A stretch of DNA of 63,275 nt from NCBI GenBank assembly GCA_021731165.1, contig JAKFXY010000035.1:1-63275 (forward strand), in the 5' to 3' direction. Both the position numbers and the translations under genes were made by a program. A model generated the notes under the pieces. It saw nothing but the letters and a program-made list of their open reading frames with translations, was not told where the DNA came from and did not search any database. Position 1 is the first letter of the stretch, and each line of letters starts with the position of its first letter. Positions 41,808 through 49,632 of this stretch are shown in pieces. The DNA comes from Acidobacteriota bacterium (GTDB lineage: Bacteria; Acidobacteriota; Vicinamibacteria; Vicinamibacterales; UBA2999).

Positions 41808-42748
41808 AACTCGGACTCATCGCTGGCAACGGACGCTTTCCGTTCCTGGTGCTCGAAGCCGCGCGCGCGCAGGGGCACGACGTCACCGTCATCGCGGCGA
41901 AAGAGGAAACCTTTCCCGAGCTCGCCGCGGCCGCCGAGCGGCACGGTGCTCCTGTCCACTGGATTTCCCTCGGCCATCTCGGAAAGTGCGTAGACCTCTT
42001 GAAGGCCGCCGGGGCTACCCACGCCGTGATGGCCGGTCAGGTCAAGCACACCAAGCTGTTCGCCGGCGGAATCATCCCGGACCTGACGTTCATGTCGGTG
42101 CTCATGAAGCTGCGCGGCCGGAACACCGACGGTGTGATCGGCGCCGTGGCTCAGGTCTTGCGGAACGAAGGAATCGAGCTGATGGACTCGACGGCGCTGC
42201 TCCAGCCGCTGCTCGCGAAGCCAGGGGTGCTCACGAGGCGCTCGCCGGCGGAGGAGGAACAGAAGGACTTCGACTTCGGTTACCGAATGGCCGACGCGAT
42301 TGCGGGTCTTGATATCGGACAAACCATTGCCGTCAAGCAGCTCGCCGTTGTGGCGGTGGAAGCGATGGAAGGCACCGACGAGGTCATTGCCCGGGCCGGC
42401 CACCTCGCTGGACCGGGTGTGCGAATCGTAAAAGTGGCCAAGCCGAAACAGGACATGCGGTTCGACGTGCCGGTCATCGGTCTCGCGACAATCCAGGCAA
42501 TGCGGGTCGCCGGAGCGACAGCGCTCTCCGTGGACGCTGGCCGTACGCTCGTGCTCGACGGCGACGCGGTGTATGCCGCCGCCAACGAGGCAGGCATCGC
42601 CATCGTCGCTCGGGCGCTTGCTGACCTGCCAGACGGATCTGACCCTTCGGCACGCTCAGGGTCCTCCCGTCCTTCGGCAGGCTCGGGACGCCCCGAGCGT
42701 GTCGAAGGACGAGATGAGTCGAGGGATGACGCGGGCGGTCCCTCATGA
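41804..42748 (+). CDS. lpxI: UDP-2,3-diacylglucosamine pyrophosphatase LpxI
   Basis: 314 residues from ATG 41804. LpxI motifs: [33 protein letters not shown], the C-terminal [13 protein letters not shown] and [13 protein letters not shown]. It replaces LpxH in lipid A assembly. The family is about 270-285 residues; here about 40 extra residues ([20 protein letters not shown] and onward) come from a palindromic repeat at 42642-42711. Its stop overlaps the oxidoreductase ATG. Confidence 0.93.
42642..42711. repeat. Palindromic repeat inside the lpxI 3' end
   Basis: The core 42668-42711 (44 nt) folds almost perfectly: CGTCCTTCGGCA and GCTCGGG pair with CCCGAGC and TGTCGAAGGACG, one mismatch, loop ACGC. 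A second, partial copy (ACCCTTCGGCACGCTCAGGG) lies just before. The reading frame stays open through the element. Confidence 0.85.
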
Positions 42749-43797
42749 GCAAGACGCGCGTGGCAGTCATTGGCGTCGGTCATCTTGGGCAGCATCATGC
42801 GCGGCTGCTCGCCGAAATGGACGATGTCGAACTCGTTGGCGTCGTTGACTCCGACGCTGCTCGAGCAGAGGAGATCGCCGCGAAGTACGGGACGAGGACA
42901 TGGGCGTCGCCCGCCGACCTGCTCACGCGAGTCGATGCCGTGTCGATCGCGGCGCCAACCGTTGTCCACGTGGAACTCGCGCTGCCATTCGTGGAGGCGG
43001 GAGTGGCGGTCCTTGTGGAAAAGCCACTTGCGGCGAGCGTGGCGGATGCGGACCGGCTGCTCGCGGCAGCCGCCCGGCGAGGCGGACTGGTGGCCGCGGG
43101 CCACACCGAGCGATTCAATCCCGCCGTGGCCGCGGCGATACCGCTCATCACCGCGCCACGGTTTATTGAAATTCATCGCCTCGGCACGTTCCCGGAGCGC
43201 AGCCTCGACATCGACGTGGTCTTCGATCTGATGATCCATGACCTGGATCTGCTGCTTGCCGTTGTCGGCTCACGCGTCGAGTCGATCGAGGCGGTGGGCG
43301 TCAACGTGCTCACGCCCAGGACGGACATCGCGAACGTGCGGCTGCGGTTCGCCTCGGGCTGTATCGCCAACCTCACGGCGAGCCGGATCAGCCGCGAGCG
43401 CGTGCGGAAGGCCCGTTTCTTCCAGCCGCAGGCTTACGTCTCCATCGACTATGCCGCCCAAGAGGTCGAGGTCTATCGCATCGAGCCGCGCCCCTCGACT
43501 ACGGCTCGTCCCTCGGTTCCGCTCGCCCGCCGACACGCTCAGGGCGTCCTGAGTTCGTCGAAGGACGGGACAGCCCAGAGCCTGCCCCAGGGTCGGACTG
43601 CCCTGAGCATTGTCGAAGGGCAGGAAGGGCGGCCCGTCATTCAAGGTGGCCGTCTGGAGATTGTCAACGAGGAGCCGTTGAAGCGTGAGCTGGCCGATTT
43701 CGTTGAGGCGGTTCGGACGGGCCGGCAGCCCGGCGTGACAGGGAGTGCCGGGCGGGAGGCCTTGGCCCTCGCGACGAGGATTGCGGAGCTGATGTAG
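42745..43797 (+). CDS. Gfo/Idh/MocA-family NAD(P)-dependent oxidoreductase
   Basis: 350 residues. Rossmann start [20 protein letters not shown] and the family's EKPLA and [11 protein letters not shown], the latter typical of LpxI-linked sugar-nucleotide enzymes. Typical length is about 300-310; residues about 250-297 ([20 protein letters not shown] and on) are encoded by inserted palindromes at 43531-43623. The substrate is unknown; the position after lpxI suggests a modification of the lipid A or UDP-sugar pathway. Confidence 0.88.
43531..43623. repeat. Two palindromes inserted in the Gfo/Idh gene
   Basis: CGACACGCTCAGG (43531-43543) pairs with CCTGAGTTCGTCG (43548-43560), loop GCGT. CTGCCCT (43598-43604) pairs with AGGGCAG (43617-43623). 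Both keep the frame and code for low-complexity Ser/Arg/Gln-rich peptide. Confidence 0.8.
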
Positions 43798-43806
43798 GGC
43801 GGGCCA

Positions 43807-44703
43807 TTGACGACATCAACCTTCGAGACATACATGCAACGCGTGAGCGTCGGCGAGCGGCTCTCCCCAGAGGAGATCGCCGGTCTTGCGGAAGCGCCGG
43901 ATATCCTGCCGCTCGGGATGCTCGCTGACGTTCTGCGCCGGCGCCTGCACGACAAGGCGGTGACGTACTTGCGAGTCGCACGCTGTGCCTTTGACCAGAT
44001 CATGGCCGAGGCCGTATCGCCGGCGGCGCGCGAGGTCCGCTTGACCGGCGCCCCGGACACGCTCCCGATCGCGGTGTCTGCCGTCTCCCGCGCGCGGGGG
44101 ATTGCGGGCGACCGCGCGGTGTCCGGCTTCTCGTGGGGCGACGTGGAGCGGCTCGCGCGCGCTGGGGCAGGATCGGTGTCGGAAGTGCTGGGCGAGTTGC
44201 GTACGGCCGGTCTCGATGCGGTCGCCGAGTTGCCGATGGATCGCATTGACAGCCTCGACGAGGCAGTCGATCTGCTCACCGCCGCCGGATTCAGCCGACT
44301 TCGGCTCACGGTGGACAGTGCCGCCGCGGCCGAACGGCCGGCGCTGTTCCTGCGTGCGGCGGTCCTTCAAGAGCGCGGTGGCGCTATCCAGGCGATCAAC
44401 CCGCTGCCCATGGTACTGAACGCGATGCGTCCGACGACGGGATACAGCGACGTGAAGATGGTTGCGATTGCGCGGCTCGCCGCTCCCAACGTCGCGATGA
44501 TTCAAGTGGATTGGCTTCGCTACGGCCCCAAGCTGGCTCAAGTGGCGCTGACGTTCGGGGCCGACGATCTCGATAACTGCTCCCCCTCGGATGACGCTCC
44601 CGACGGCAAGCGGCGCGCCCCGCTCGAGGAGATTCGCCGCAACGTCGACGCCGCCGGCTTTACGCCCGTCGAGCGCGACGGGCGATTCGCCGTTGTCGGC
44701 TGA
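43807..44703 (+). CDS. MqnE-like protein lacking the radical-SAM cysteines
   Basis: 298 residues against about 370 for aminofutalosine synthase MqnE. The N-terminus fits MqnE/MqnC (QRVSVGERLSPEEIAGLAEA then LADVLRRRLHDKAVTYLRVA), as does the C-terminal half (MVAIARLAAPNVAMIQVDWL, YGPKLAQVALTFGADDLDN). The CxxxCxxC cluster motif that should follow the first part is replaced by RVARCAFDQIM, with a single cysteine (C60). It therefore cannot bind the 4Fe-4S/SAM centre in the usual way. It sits directly upstream of mqnA. It may be a scaffold, a repurposed enzyme or a decayed paralogue; a true MqnE must be encoded elsewhere. Confidence 0.75.
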   Translation: MTTSTFETYMQRVSVGERLSPEEIAGLAEAPDILPLGMLADVLRRRLHDKAVTYLRVARCAFDQIMAEAVSPAAREVRLTGAPDTLPIAVSAVSRARGIAGDRAVSGFSWGDVERLARAGAGSVSEVLGELRTAGLDAVAELPMDRIDSLDEAVDLLTAAGFSRLRLTVDSAAAAERPALFLRAAVLQERGGAIQAINPLPMVLNAMRPTTGYSDVKMVAIARLAAPNVAMIQVDWLRYGPKLAQVALTFGADDLDNCSPSDDAPDGKRRAPLEEIRRNVDAAGFTPVERDGRFAVVG

Positions 44704-44713
44704 TGGCGGCGTC

Positions 44714-45508
44714 GTGACGCCGGTGGTGAGAATTGGCGCTGTCGGCTATCTAAACGCCCGCCCGCTGACATGGGCGCTCGACGCCGCTCCGGACCAGTGG
44801 CAGGTGCGGTACGATTTGCCCTCCATCTGTGCGGGCTTGCTCGAGGCAGGAGAGATTGATCTCGGTCTCGTGCCTTCGATCGAGTATCTCCAGAGCGACA
44901 GCTATCGACTTGTGCCTGGCGTGGGGATCGGCTCGCGCGGGCCGGTCGCGTCGGTGGCGCTCTTCACGCGGCGGCCTGTCGGCCAGATTCGCCGCCTGGC
45001 GCTCGACACGAGTTCGCGCACCTCGGTCGCCCTTATCCGCATCCTCTGCCTGCATCGATTTGGCATCACGCCAGAATTCGTCATGCACGGCCCAGACCTG
45101 GCGGGGATGACCGCTGCTTGCGATGCCGGGCTGCTCATCGGCGATCCGGCTCTAGAGGCCGACCATGCGGCGCTCGGGCTCACGAAGATCGATCTTGGGG
45201 AGGAGTGGACGGCGATGACGGGTTTGCCGTTCATCTACGCGGCGTGGACAGGCCGGGTGGGGACGGTACCAAGGGGTCAGGTCCTGGCGCTGCAGGTGGC
45301 GCAGGATGAAGGGGTGCGGGCGCTCGACGCAGTCGCGGCGGAATACGGTCGCGGCGACGCTGGCGCGACTCACCGGGCTCTCGCATATCTTCGGGATAAT
45401 ATGAGGTACGGCTTGGGTCCGGACGAAGCGAAGGGTCTTCAACTCTTCCTGGACCACGCGGCTGACCTTGGCCTCGCGCCCCGGCGGCGCCGGCTGGAGT
45501 TCTTCTAG
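44714..45508 (+). CDS. mqnA: Chorismate dehydratase MqnA
   Basis: 264 residues from GTG 44714 (GTG 44723 or 44726 also in frame); the longer ORF overlaps the previous gene. Periplasmic-binding-protein fold: VVRIGAVGYLNARPLTWALD, EAGEIDLGLVPSIEYL, LALDTSSRTSVALIRILC, and LPFIYAAWTGR. Converts chorismate to 3-enolpyruvylbenzoate, the first step of the futalosine menaquinone route. Confidence 0.92.
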   Translation: MTPVVRIGAVGYLNARPLTWALDAAPDQWQVRYDLPSICAGLLEAGEIDLGLVPSIEYLQSDSYRLVPGVGIGSRGPVASVALFTRRPVGQIRRLALDTSSRTSVALIRILCLHRFGITPEFVMHGPDLAGMTAACDAGLLIGDPALEADHAALGLTKIDLGEEWTAMTGLPFIYAAWTGRVGTVPRGQVLALQVAQDEGVRALDAVAAEYGRGDAGATHRALAYLRDNMRYGLGPDEAKGLQLFLDHAADLGLAPRRRRLEFF

Positions 45509-45512
45509 GCGT

Positions 45513-46715
45513 ATGGTCGAGCAGATCGCAGATAAGGTGCTCGCAGGCGGCCGGGTTGACGCTGCCGAGGCTGTCGAGCTCTATCGCCACGCCCCGACCA
45601 ATCTGCTCGGCCGCCTGGCCGATGTCATTCGTGGCCGGAAGCATCCCGGTCGCATCGTCACGTACATCATCGACCGCAACGTCAACTACACGAACGTCTG
45701 CGTCGCTCGGTGCAACTTTTGTGCGTTCTACCGGCCGGTTGGTTCCGCCGAAGGCTACGTGCTCGGCTTCGACGAGATCTTTGCGAAGATCGACGAGACG
45801 ATCTCAGTGGGTGGGAACCAGCTCCTGCTGCAGGGCGGGCACAACCCCGACCTGCCGATCGCATGGTATGAGGATCTCTTTCGGGCCGTGAAGGCGCGGT
45901 ATCCATCGTTCAAGCTCCACGCGCTCTCGCCGCCCGAGGTGCTGCACATCGCCAAACTGAACCAGCTCACCGTACCAGTCGTCATCGAACGCCTGGTGGC
46001 CGCGGGCCTGGACAGTATTCCTGGCGGCGGCGCCGAGATCCTCGTGGATCGGGTACGGAAGCTGCTGAACTGCTTCGGCAAGGCTTCATCGGATGACTGG
46101 CTTGACGTGATGCGTCAGGCACATCGCGCCGGGCTTCGCACGACGGCCACGATGATGTACGGAACCGTGGAGACGCCGGAAGAGCGCATCGAGCACATGA
46201 TGCGCCTGCGGGACGTGCAGGATGAGACGGGCGGGTTCACCGCGTTCATTACCTGGAGTTACCAGCCGGAGCACACCGAGCGGGGCGGTCGTGAGGCGAC
46301 CGGCATCGACTACCTTCGCACGCTCGCCCTGGCGCGCGTTGTTCTCGACAACGTCGACAACATGCAGGCGTCGTGGGTCACGCAGGGAGGCAAGGTGGGG
46401 CAGCTCAGCCTCGCGTTTGGCGCCAACGACATGGGCAGCGTGATGATCGAGGAGAACGTCGTGCGAGCGGCCGGCGCGAGCTACTGCATGGACGAAGTCG
46501 AGATCGTGGTCAACATCGAGGACGCAGGCTTTACTCCCAAGCGCAGAAACATGCACTACGAACTGTTGGGCGATCCGGTCTTCCGTGAACGCGAAGTGCC
46601 CCGGATGCTTTCGTTGGCCACTGCTCGCGAGGACGGCGACGACTCGATTCCTGGCGATCTGAAGAACTACCCGGCCCGGAGTCGAGAGGCCAAACGCCTT
46701 CGTCTCGCGCAGTGA
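45513..46715 (+). CDS. mqnC: Cyclic dehypoxanthinyl futalosine synthase MqnC
   Basis: 400 residues from ATG 45513, 4 nt after mqnA. Radical-SAM motif in NYTNVCVARCNFCAFYRP, QLLLQGGHNPDLPIAWYEDL, and a GANDMGSVMIEENVV end. It cyclises dehypoxanthinyl futalosine. Length and cysteines are intact, in contrast to the MqnE-like neighbour at 43807. Confidence 0.94.
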   Translation: MVEQIADKVLAGGRVDAAEAVELYRHAPTNLLGRLADVIRGRKHPGRIVTYIIDRNVNYTNVCVARCNFCAFYRPVGSAEGYVLGFDEIFAKIDETISVGGNQLLLQGGHNPDLPIAWYEDLFRAVKARYPSFKLHALSPPEVLHIAKLNQLTVPVVIERLVAAGLDSIPGGGAEILVDRVRKLLNCFGKASSDDWLDVMRQAHRAGLRTTATMMYGTVETPEERIEHMMRLRDVQDETGGFTAFITWSYQPEHTERGGREATGIDYLRTLALARVVLDNVDNMQASWVTQGGKVGQLSLAFGANDMGSVMIEENVVRAAGASYCMDEVEIVVNIEDAGFTPKRRNMHYELLGDPVFREREVPRMLSLATAREDGDDSIPGDLKNYPARSREAKRLRLAQ

Positions 46716-46769: not shown

Positions 46770-48038
46770 ATGACTCGATACCAGGCAGCGTGGGTACTTC
46801 CGATTGCCGCAGCGCCGATTCCCGGCGGCTGGGTGGCGACTGAGCGTGGACGAATTGCCGCCGTGGGCGGAGGGCCGTCGCCCGACGCCGTGAATCTTGG
46901 CCGGGTCGCGTTGCTGCCCGCGCTCGTGAATGCGCATACGCATCTGGAGCTGTCGTATCTCCGCGGACGGATTCCGCGCGCGGAGCGGTTCCTCGAGTGG
47001 GTGCGCGGCCTGATGAAGACGCGGCAGCAGTATCCCGATCCCGCCGCCACCGTGATCGTCGAGGCCGCCAGGCGCGCGATGTTCGAGGCGCACGCCGCCG
47101 GAACAGGCCTCTTCGGCGAGGTCACGAACAGCCTTGTCACGGTGCCGCTGCTGCGAGAGGCGCGGATGCCCGCAAGAGTGTTCTACGAGCTCCTCGGGTT
47201 CAATACGCCCAATCCGCGGGATCGTGTGGCGCAGGCGCAGATCCGGGCCGCCGAGGCTCTGCGAGAAGGCGGAGACGCCCGGCACGGCGACAGCGACTTG
47301 CGTGTCAGCCTGGCACCCCATGCCCCCTATTCCGTGTCTCCAGGCCTCTTCAGGGCTATTCGCGACGCCCTCGATTCGGCACCCCAACCAGTGACGAGCG
47401 TGCACCTGGGCGAATCCCCGGAGGAAGTCGAATTCCTTCGCGACGGAGGCGGTGGTTGGCGCGAGATGCTCGAGGGACTGGGCGCCTGGAGTTCTGAATG
47501 GCAGCCACCCGCGGCGTCGCCGGTGGCGTATCTCGACAAGATTGATTTTCTCGACAGTCGTGTACTGGCGGTGCACGGCGCACAGTTCTTGGGGGAGGAC
47601 CTGGACCGGCTCAGCGCGCTTGGAACGACCATCGTCTCTTGTCCCCGCAGCAACCAGCATGTCGGGGTCGGAGTACCGCCAATCGAGGCGTTCTACGCGG
47701 CTGGCGTAGAAGTCGCGTTCGGTACGGACAGCCTGGCGAGCGTGGACGATCTCAACCTCTTTGCGGAGCTGGCGGAGGCGAGGCGCTTGGCGCCGCGCGT
47801 ATCCGCGCGGACGCTGTTGGAGAGTGCGACCCGCGTCGGGGCGCGCGCGCTGGGATTCGAGGAGGACTACGGCACGCTCGAACCCGGCCGCCGGGCCGCG
47901 ATTATTGCCGTGCGCGTCCCTGAGGGCGTGAACGATGTGGAAGAATATCTGGTGGGTGGAATTCAGCCCGACGCCATTGAGTGGCTGGATTCGACAAATC
48001 CCCGATTCCAAGTCCCAGATCCCAGGTCCCACGTGTGA
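46770..48038 (+). CDS. mqnX: Amidohydrolase, probable aminodeoxyfutalosine deaminase
   Basis: 422 residues from ATG 46770 (GTG 46755 also open). Amidohydrolase metal motifs: VNAHTHLELSYLRG, APHAPYSVSP, TSVHLGESPEE, and VAFGTDSLASVDDL. In the modified futalosine route this family deaminates aminofutalosine; the position between mqnC and the prenyltransferase gene supports that. The last residues (NPRFQVPDPRSHV) derive from a TCCCAGATCCCAGG-type intergenic word and are unlikely to matter. Confidence 0.85.
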   Translation: MTRYQAAWVLPIAAAPIPGGWVATERGRIAAVGGGPSPDAVNLGRVALLPALVNAHTHLELSYLRGRIPRAERFLEWVRGLMKTRQQYPDPAATVIVEAARRAMFEAHAAGTGLFGEVTNSLVTVPLLREARMPARVFYELLGFNTPNPRDRVAQAQIRAAEALREGGDARHGDSDLRVSLAPHAPYSVSPGLFRAIRDALDSAPQPVTSVHLGESPEEVEFLRDGGGGWREMLEGLGAWSSEWQPPAASPVAYLDKIDFLDSRVLAVHGAQFLGEDLDRLSALGTTIVSCPRSNQHVGVGVPPIEAFYAAGVEVAFGTDSLASVDDLNLFAELAEARRLAPRVSARTLLESATRVGARALGFEEDYGTLEPGRRAAIIAVRVPEGVNDVEEYLVGGIQPDAIEWLDSTNPRFQVPDPRSHV

Positions 48039-48889
48039 TGAGCAGAATCGCCACGTATCTGTCGTTCGTGCGGTTCGGCCATTCTGTGTTCGCGATGCCG
48101 TTTGCGCTGACGGGAGCGCTGCTCGCGTGGCGGGATCACCCGTTCTCGTGGGCGCAGGTCGGCTGGATTGCCGCCTGCATGGTGAGCGCCCGCAGCGCGG
48201 CGATGGGCTTCAACCGGCTCGTGGACGCGCGGTACGACGCGCTCAATCCGCGAACGGCGATGCGCGAGATTCCGCGCGGCGCGATGTCCTCGACCGAGGC
48301 GGTGGTGTTCGTGGCTATTGCCGCCGTCGTGTTTGTCGGGTCGGCTTCACGTCTGGGCACTCTCTGTCTTGTTCTGTCGCCGGTGGCCCTCGGTGTCGTC
48401 TTCTGGTACTCACTCGCCAAGCGGTACACCGCGTACACGCAATTCTTTCTCGGCCTCGCGATGGCTGTGGCGCCGGTGGGCGGCTGGCTGGCGGCCGGGG
48501 GAGGAGCTGGGTTGGAGCCGTGGCTGCTTGGCCTGGCGATTGGCCTCTGGGTCGGCGGCTTTGATGTTCTCTATGCCTGCCAGGACGTGGAGTTCGATCG
48601 CGGGCACGGTCTTCGATCCATTCCCACGCGTTTCGGCGTGAGGGGGGCGATTCGCCTGTCGCGCGTGATGCACGTAGCGACCATCGTCGCGATGGCCATG
48701 CTCTGGCGAGCTGCCGGTTTGCCGCCGCTCTACATGGCCGGCGTCGCCCTGGTGGCCATCCTGCTCACCTATGAGCAGTCCCTGGTGAGCGACGACGACT
48801 TGTCGCAGGTGAAGCGGGCCTTCGATCTCAACGGCTACGTCGGCATCGTCTACTTCCTTGCCACCGCGGCATCGCTCTATCTCGGATGA
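48038..48889 (+). CDS. UbiA-family prenyltransferase of menaquinone synthesis (MqnP-like)
   Basis: 283 residues from ATG 48038, one base into the mqnX stop. UbiA Asp motifs: GFNRLVDARYDALNPRT, and YACQDVEFDRGHGLRSIP. About eight or nine helices. It attaches the prenyl chain to the naphthoate precursor. Confidence 0.9.
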   Translation: MSRIATYLSFVRFGHSVFAMPFALTGALLAWRDHPFSWAQVGWIAACMVSARSAAMGFNRLVDARYDALNPRTAMREIPRGAMSSTEAVVFVAIAAVVFVGSASRLGTLCLVLSPVALGVVFWYSLAKRYTAYTQFFLGLAMAVAPVGGWLAAGGGAGLEPWLLGLAIGLWVGGFDVLYACQDVEFDRGHGLRSIPTRFGVRGAIRLSRVMHVATIVAMAMLWRAAGLPPLYMAGVALVAILLTYEQSLVSDDDLSQVKRAFDLNGYVGIVYFLATAASLYLG

Positions 48890-49632
48890 CACCGGACAGG
48901 GCCGACAAGAGCGTTGCCGACAAGACGCCGGATCGCATCGCGGGAATGTTCGACGCGATTGCACCGCGGTATGACCTCCTCAACCATGTCCTCAGCGCGG
49001 GTATCGATCGTCGGTGGCGTGCACGCGCGATCGCATCGCTGAACCTGACCGGGCGCGAGACGCTCCTCGACGTCTGCGCCGGTACGGCGGACGTCGCGCT
49101 CGAGGCGCGTAGGGAGTCCGGCGCCGCGAGGGTCGTCGGCGTGGATTTCGCCGGCGCAATGCTGCGACTCGGCCTGTCCAAGGTGAGGTCCGCAGGTGAA
49201 TCTGGCCGCATCGCGCTCGTTCAGGGCGATGCGATGTGTCTGCCGGTGGCTGACGGCTGCGCCGACGCGGCGACCGTGGCCTTCGGCATCCGCAACGTAC
49301 AGCATCCGGATGTGGCGTGTCGTGAAATCGCGCGGGCACTGCGCCCAGGCGGGCGGTTGGCGATACTGGAGTTCGGCGTTCCCAGGCTTCCAGGGGTGAG
49401 TGCGGCGTACCTCTGGTACTTCAGGCACGTGCTCCCACGGCTCGGCCGAGTTGTCTCCGGGCACGGGGCCGCGTACTCCTACCTCCCGGCCTCGGTCGCC
49501 ACGTTTCCACCGCCCGGCGAATTCATGAAGACGCTGGTGGCCGCCGGTTTTACTGACGTGCGGGCAGTCCCGCTGACGCTGGGCGTCGTCTATTTGTATG
49601 TGGGAACCAAACGGGGCGTGGCTCGTGGGTAG
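48886..49632 (+). CDS. ubiE: Demethylmenaquinone methyltransferase (UbiE/MenG)
   Basis: 248 residues. SAM-binding motif DVCAGTADVALEA, the family's MFDAIAPRYDLLNHVLSAG with RRWR, and VAFGIRNVQHPD. Last step of menaquinone synthesis. Its stop lies inside a GGTGGT repeat. Confidence 0.93.
   Translation: MTPDRADKSVADKTPDRIAGMFDAIAPRYDLLNHVLSAGIDRRWRARAIASLNLTGRETLLDVCAGTADVALEARRESGAARVVGVDFAGAMLRLGLSKVRSAGESGRIALVQGDAMCLPVADGCADAATVAFGIRNVQHPDVACREIARALRPGGRLAILEFGVPRLPGVSAAYLWYFRHVLPRLGRVVSGHGAAYSYLPASVATFPPPGEFMKTLVAAGFTDVRAVPLTLGVVYLYVGTKRGVARG

What the first reader, a model, noticed from the sequence alone, without database searches (positions are those of the whole stretch)
43807..44703. 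MqnE-like protein that has lost its radical-SAM cluster, in a futalosine operon
The gene just before mqnA keeps MqnE-like N- and C-terminal blocks but replaces CxxxCxxC by ARCAFDQIM and is about 70 residues shorter. It is in a tight operon with intact mqnA and mqnC, so it is probably expressed. A catalytically altered radical-SAM homologue within a biosynthetic operon could be a partner or regulator of the real MqnE, or a new enzyme.
Basis: partly seen in the sequence, partly recalled or inferred. Interest (0 to 1): 0.65.

Follow-up and report, generated by a model that had tools for sequence, protein, structure and literature searches.

The report
Cluster-less MqnE relative beside mqnA
A whole order of soil and groundwater Acidobacteriota keeps, next to its vitamin K2 genes, a shrunken copy of the radical enzyme MqnE that has lost the iron-sulfur site and SAM-binding residues but is still under strong selection, so it probably serves as a non-catalytic partner or ligand-binding protein in the pathway.

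Summary
ORF 43807-44703 (298 aa, "X") is homologous to MqnE/MqnC over its full length and is predicted to fold as the MqnE barrel (pLDDT 96.6; best PDB match MqnE 6xig, TM-score 0.81). It lacks CxxxCxxC and the SAM-binding and catalytic residues. It is not decaying: 51 of 59 relatives carry it, none of 79 aligned copies has the motif, dN/dS is 0.11-0.24, and it lies directly upstream of mqnA in 79 of 80 loci, with a 4-base ATGA overlap in 59. The same genome has an intact MqnE elsewhere, as did all 12 genomes of the order (Vicinamibacterales) that were checked. The sister order has mqnE-mqnA-mqnC in one cluster, so X occupies the old mqnE slot. X most likely derives from MqnE, is no longer a radical enzyme, and has a re-fitted pocket with its own invariant arginines. 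Best guess: a non-catalytic partner of MqnA that binds or hands over its product to the MqnE encoded elsewhere. That role is inferred from translational coupling and a moderate rate covariation with MqnA, not shown. I found no description of such a protein in the papers searched.

The parts
43807..44703 (+). X: MqnE/CofH-family pseudo-radical-SAM protein, 298 aa, TTG start
43978..44004 (+). ARCAFDQIM (residues 58-66), where MqnE/MqnC carry the CxxxCxxC loop; loop deleted in X, the single Cys not conserved
44401..44676 (+). C-terminal half (residues 199-290): MqnE/MqnC core residues A220, R223, W236, G251, A283, R290 kept; X-specific invariant G267, R269, R270 and near-invariant D235
44714..45508 (+). 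mqnA, chorismate dehydratase family (PF02621), GTG start 10 bp after X
45513..46715 (+). mqnC, intact radical-SAM cyclase (CVARCNFC), above NCBIfam cut-off
46770..48038 (+). amidohydrolase related to aminofutalosine deaminase (sub-threshold NCBIfam match)
47981..48889 (+). UbiA-family prenyltransferase, MqnP-like (TIGR01475 above cut-off)
48886..49632 (+). ubiE/menG-type methyltransferase (TIGR01934 above cut-off)
42745..43797 (+). Gfo/Idh-type ORF directly upstream of X (named by reading; the neighbour is conserved)

Best explanation
X is a conserved, non-radical descendant of MqnE. Shown: an MqnE-type predicted fold without the [4Fe-4S] loop and without the conserved SAM-site and catalytic residues; purifying selection; a fixed place ahead of mqnA, usually translationally coupled to it; and an intact MqnE encoded elsewhere in the genome. 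Inferred history: an mqnE-mqnA-mqnC operon like that of the sister order gained a second, separate MqnE, and the in-operon copy lost its chemistry but kept its partner and half of its pocket. Inferred mechanism: X is made in step with MqnA and binds it, and its re-fitted pocket (kept Trp236/Arg223/Arg290 plus new invariant or near-invariant Arg78, Arg269 and Arg270) holds the anionic MqnA product, 3-[(1-carboxyvinyl)oxy]benzoate, stabilising MqnA and/or passing the product to the MqnE encoded elsewhere.
For: Full-length homology. Model pLDDT 96.6, pTM 0.93; top four PDB matches are MqnE 6xig/6xi9, TM 0.80-0.82. All three Cys and N68, G117, P178-G181, K197, H211, T220, G224, E227, H235 (own-MqnE numbering) are lost, while A280, R283, W296, G311, A348, R355 are kept. 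dN/dS 0.11-0.24, close to mqnA in the same loci. X ahead of mqnA in 79 of 80 loci, 59 with a -4 overlap. Intact MqnE in all 12 genomes of the order in one sample. Sister order has mqnE-mqnA-mqnC contiguous. AU test accepts X with sister-order MqnE (p 0.38) and weakly rejects X with MqnC (p 0.02-0.04). Partial rate covariation is highest with MqnA in three of four gene sets (0.52, 0.36, 0.44).
Against: No direct evidence of binding to MqnA or to any ligand. Rate covariation can come from shared operon history; in one set of 48 loci MqnC (0.28) and the amidohydrolase (0.31) match MqnA (0.28). With MqnE the test had only 7 genomes. X evolves fastest of the genes compared, more like a tolerant subunit or sensor than a tightly packed complex. 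One locus (L091) has X and mqnC but no detectable mqnA beside X.
Confidence: 0.42

Rival explanations
1. X is a ligand-sensing or regulatory protein: the emptied barrel binds a futalosine-pathway intermediate (aminofutalosine or the cyclic product) and tunes MqnC, MqnE or gene expression, without a stable complex with MqnA.
For: Conserved residues cluster at the C-terminal ends of strands 1, 2, 6, 7 and 8 and the following loop (Arg78, Gln233, Asp235, Trp236, Asp254, Asp256, Arg269, Arg270), as expected for a kept pocket. Fast overall evolution fits a sensor.
Against: No DNA-binding or other effector domain; the whole protein is the barrel plus N-terminal helices. The frequent stop/start overlap with mqnA suggests matched stoichiometry with MqnA.
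Confidence: 0.22
2. X is a new non-radical enzyme: the barrel pocket was re-fitted for a SAM-independent reaction in or near the futalosine pathway.
For: X-specific conserved charged residues (Arg56, Arg78, Asp235, Arg269, Arg270) replace MqnE residues, and His113 of MqnE becomes Arg78. They are kept across copies as little as 38% identical.
Against: The operon plus the separate MqnE already supply the known steps recognised here, so no reaction is plainly missing. No typical acid/base or metal set appears beyond Asp and Arg residues; no His or Cys is among the residues conserved in 90% or more.
Confidence: 0.16
3. X is a non-catalytic subunit or assembly partner of the genuine MqnE (or MqnC).
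For: Shared ancestry makes pseudo-symmetric pairing easy. X, MqnC and MqnE occur together in the genomes checked.
Against: mqnE is not beside X or mqnA in the loci read from the order, and the rate comparison gives no X-MqnE signal (partial 0.05, only 7 genomes). X-MqnC partial correlation is weaker than X-MqnA in three of four sets.
Confidence: 0.15
4. X is a decaying relic of an in-operon mqnE, kept only as a spacer.
For: Loss of catalytic residues, higher divergence than its neighbours.
Against: No stops inside the X matches listed except one TGA reported in G024 (a longer match than); open frames in 80 loci; dN/dS 0.11-0.24; invariant residues across the order.
Confidence: 0.02

Closest known systems
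MqnE, aminofutalosine synthase (PDB 6xi9, 6xig; TIGR03700)
   Same: Full-length profile match, same predicted fold (TM 0.81), N-terminal helical block and C-terminal half with Arg/Trp/Gly/Arg core; same operon slot ahead of mqnA in the sister order.
   Different: No CxxxCxxC, no PGGGAE, no conserved His/Asn/Glu catalytic set, about 76 aa shorter, 70 bits against a cut-off of 434.55; separate clade; intact MqnE encoded elsewhere.
MqnC, cyclic dehypoxanthinyl futalosine synthase (TIGR03699)
   Same: Homologous over the full length; matches this model at 71 bits; in the same operon.
   Different: No cluster motif; AU tests weakly reject grouping with MqnC; intact mqnC sits two genes downstream.
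CofH / CofH_C domain (PF19288)
   Same: C-terminal domain match above the Pfam cut-off.
   Different: No radical-SAM domain; gene neighbourhood is menaquinone, not F420.
Pseudoenzyme partners of biosynthetic enzymes in general (from own knowledge, a lead only)
   Same: A duplicated enzyme that lost catalysis but stays conserved beside its pathway.
   Different: I found no described pseudoenzyme of the MqnE/MqnC/CofH radical-SAM group in the papers searched.

Membership tests
Radical SAM superfamily (as an active enzyme) | CxxxCxxC cluster motif | tested here: not met
   0 of 79 X proteins; Cys columns are gaps
Radical SAM superfamily (as an active enzyme) | Pfam Radical_SAM domain match | tested here: not met
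   no hit at E up to 1
Radical SAM superfamily (as an active enzyme) | partial TIM-barrel fold | tested here: met
   model pLDDT 96.6; top PDB matches MqnE, biotin synthase, PylB, HydG, ThiH
MqnE (TIGR03700) | score above the equivalog cut-off | tested here: not met
   70.4 against 434.55 bits
MqnE (TIGR03700) | falls inside the MqnE clade | tested here: inconclusive
   X is a separate clade on the free tree (100/100); X with sister-order MqnE not rejected (p 0.38); X with the order's own MqnE p 0.55 in the large set, 0.03 in the small set
MqnE (TIGR03700) | conserved SAM-site and catalytic residues | tested here: not met
   N68, G117, P178-G181, K197, H211, T220, G224, E227, H235 lost
MqnC (TIGR03699) | score above cut-off / groups with MqnC | tested here: not met
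   71.1 against 428.1 bits; AU p 0.02-0.04
CofH_C domain (PF19288) | Pfam gathering score | tested here: met
   36.1 against 27 bits
Pseudogene | frame decay or relaxed selection | tested here: not met
   open frames in 80 loci; dN/dS 0.11-0.24
Non-catalytic partner of MqnA | physical association with MqnA | not testable with these tools
   only indirect: overlap of genes, rate covariation

The most novel reading that the evidence does not exclude
X defines an order-wide family of repurposed radical-SAM barrels that have lost cluster and SAM yet carry a new, essential step or handover in menaquinone biosynthesis with MqnA; a possibly parallel loss in some MqnC-like proteins of another acidobacterial family would mean that the futalosine pathway repeatedly turns spare radical enzymes into non-radical parts.
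Probability: 0.3. Interest if true: 0.8.

Novelty: new variant of a known kind. Interest (0 to 1): 0.62.

Why it matters
It is a clear case of a radical-SAM protein that lost its defining cluster yet stayed under selection inside its own pathway. It may explain how some Acidobacteriota run the futalosine route, how MqnA passes its product on, and how such barrels are repurposed. It is also a caution for annotation: by its position and weak MqnE similarity X could be called mqnE, while the real mqnE lies elsewhere. Because the gene is nearly universal in the order and linked to mqnA, its role can be tested in a cultured member.

Tried and rejected
Decay was rejected on conservation, open frames and dN/dS. 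The idea that X is the genome's only MqnE was rejected (canonical copy on C10). A weak UreF Pfam hit (18.2 bits, cut-off 23.3) was taken as chance, since the high-confidence model matches MqnE. Absence of X in some relatives was examined: G045 and G055 have no CofH-family and no PF02621 match at all; in G270 MqnC sits next to a partial PF02621 match (profile positions 82-252), which fits a contig break; G013, G015 and G019 keep one CofH-family and one PF02621 match each but no second set; G008 and G056 keep only a CofH-family match; G023 only a PF02621 match. No fusion of X with a neighbour was noticed, but this was not searched systematically. Literature searches for pseudo-radical-SAM proteins or this gene in Acidobacteriota found nothing relevant. 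Exact placement of X inside MqnE could not be settled: the free tree, the large-set and the small-set tests disagree.

Full report
What is there. ORF 43807-44703 (298 aa, called X here) follows a Gfo/Idh-type ORF by 9 bp and precedes mqnA by 10 bp, mqnA precedes mqnC by 4 bp, and then come an amidohydrolase related to aminofutalosine deaminase, an MqnP-like UbiA prenyltransferase and a ubiE/menG methyltransferase. X matches Pfam CofH_C above threshold but no Radical_SAM domain, and MqnC and MqnE of NCBIfam at about 70 bits, far below the cut-offs. mqnC in the operon is intact.

Homology and fold. A profile of 79 X proteins aligns with an MqnE profile over 304 columns (E=4.6e-38) and with an MqnC profile over 301 (E=3.2e-33). 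The only convincing PDB sequence relative is MqnE, 6xi9/6xig. The AlphaFold2 model has mean pLDDT 96.6 and pTM 0.93. Its best structural matches are the MqnE chains (TM 0.80-0.82, normalised by X), then biotin synthase, PylB, HydG, ThiH and HydE.

What was lost and kept. Of positions shared by MqnE and MqnC, X has lost all three cluster cysteines, the Asn and Phe around them, Gly117, the PGGG segment, Lys197, His211, Thr220, Gly224, Glu227 and His235 (own-MqnE numbering). It has kept Ala280, Arg283, Trp296, Gly311, Ala348 and Arg355, that is Ala220, Arg223, Trp236, Gly251, Ala283 and Arg290 of X. X has its own highly conserved residues: Arg56, Arg78 (where MqnE has His113), Asp235, Gly267, Arg269 and Arg270. 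No X protein has CxxxCxxC and no cysteine is conserved. I conclude that X cannot work as a standard radical-SAM enzyme and that its pocket has been re-fitted rather than simply eroded. The second half of that sentence is inference.

Conservation and selection. Among 59 relatives of the same family and order, 51 have X, two of them in pieces. In a phylum sample, 40 genomes of the order gave full-length X scores of 248-445 bits; outside the order only lower scores were listed, mostly at longer open frames of canonical MqnE/MqnC size. The genome-collection scan returned 80 loci, all X-like; record titles are nearly all Acidobacteriota, and the few others (for example Alphaproteobacteria, Acidimicrobiia, Bifidobacterium) carry the same synteny, and those put in the tree fall within the X clade, so they are probably mislabelled bins. 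dN/dS between close pairs is 0.11-0.24 for X, similar to mqnA in the same loci.

Genomic setting. In 79 of 80 loci X sits directly upstream of mqnA; in 59 of these the stop of X and the start of mqnA overlap by four bases, and in 62 there is no gap. All 12 genomes of the order in one sample also have an MqnE above the curated cut-off; in the loci read it is not beside X or mqnA. In the sister order of the class, and in several other families of the phylum, the intact mqnE lies directly ahead of mqnA and mqnC. X therefore occupies the old mqnE slot.

Origin. In a tree of 101 proteins X is one clade (100/100), outside the MqnE clade. Its branch is long, so placement is unsafe. Holding X with the order's own MqnE gave a slightly better likelihood in the large set (p 0.55) but was weakly rejected in a smaller set (p 0.03), where X with sister-order MqnE was accepted (p 0.38) and X with MqnC was weakly rejected (p 0.02-0.04). 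An MqnE origin is the best reading; the exact branch is open.

Mechanism. Shown: loss of radical chemistry residues, retained predicted fold, selection, coupling to mqnA. Inferred: association with MqnA. Pairwise-distance covariation is highest with MqnA in three of four gene sets (partial 0.52 in 29 loci, 0.36 in 36, 0.44 in 53), but in a fourth set of 48 loci MqnC and the amidohydrolase are as high; with MqnE, in only 7 genomes, there is no signal. These distances are not independent and neighbouring genes share history, so this is a lead. The proposal is that X is a non-catalytic partner of MqnA that binds its anionic product and stabilises MqnA and/or hands the product to the MqnE encoded elsewhere. 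Sensor, new enzyme and MqnE/MqnC subunit remain open.

Relation to the known. X is a member of the MqnE/MqnC/CofH sequence family by homology and CofH_C, but not an MqnE, MqnC or radical-SAM enzyme by their defining features. The open-access literature searched held nothing on such a protein; most papers of subscription journals were not covered. The 2014 survey of the pathway counts MqnA, MqnC and MqnD in five Acidobacteria and does not mention MqnE (PMC3914697).

Naming.

Noticed in passing
L144:5206-6087 (+), L145:5719-6624 (+), L146:4711-5634 (-), L147:1652-2596 (-): Some genomes of another family (f24, probably Acidobacteriaceae) carry a different short MqnC-like protein without CxxxCxxC; it nests inside MqnC on the tree, so it is probably an independent loss. 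In L144 and L147 it lies near a VKOR-like membrane protein ORF (named by reading). In a sample of 80 f24 genomes most best matches were longer open frames (about 350 aa); their Cys motif was not checked.
   Followed up: partly
L222, L223, L224, L225: The same genomes have a divergent MqnC-like protein with intact CVAQCDYC that scores well below the MqnC cut-off and sits on a very long branch.
   Followed up: no
L174 (MqnE-like, 375 aa): An MqnE-like protein whose motif reads CVYTYNCKFC instead of CxxxCxxC, otherwise above the MqnE cut-off; possible altered spacing.
   Followed up: no
window 43480-43660: The Gfo/Idh-type ORF contains an in-frame stretch with CCTGAG...TCGAAGG repeat-like words, as if a small repeat element had been inserted and read through; a similar tail ends the ORF before it.
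   Followed up: partly
L091:9834-9843: One locus has X followed directly by mqnC with no detectable mqnA between them.
   Followed up: no
G015, G013, G019: Relatives with one CofH-family match and one PF02621 match but no X and no second mqnA/mqnC set found; G015 is 98% complete, so a real loss is possible.
   Followed up: partly
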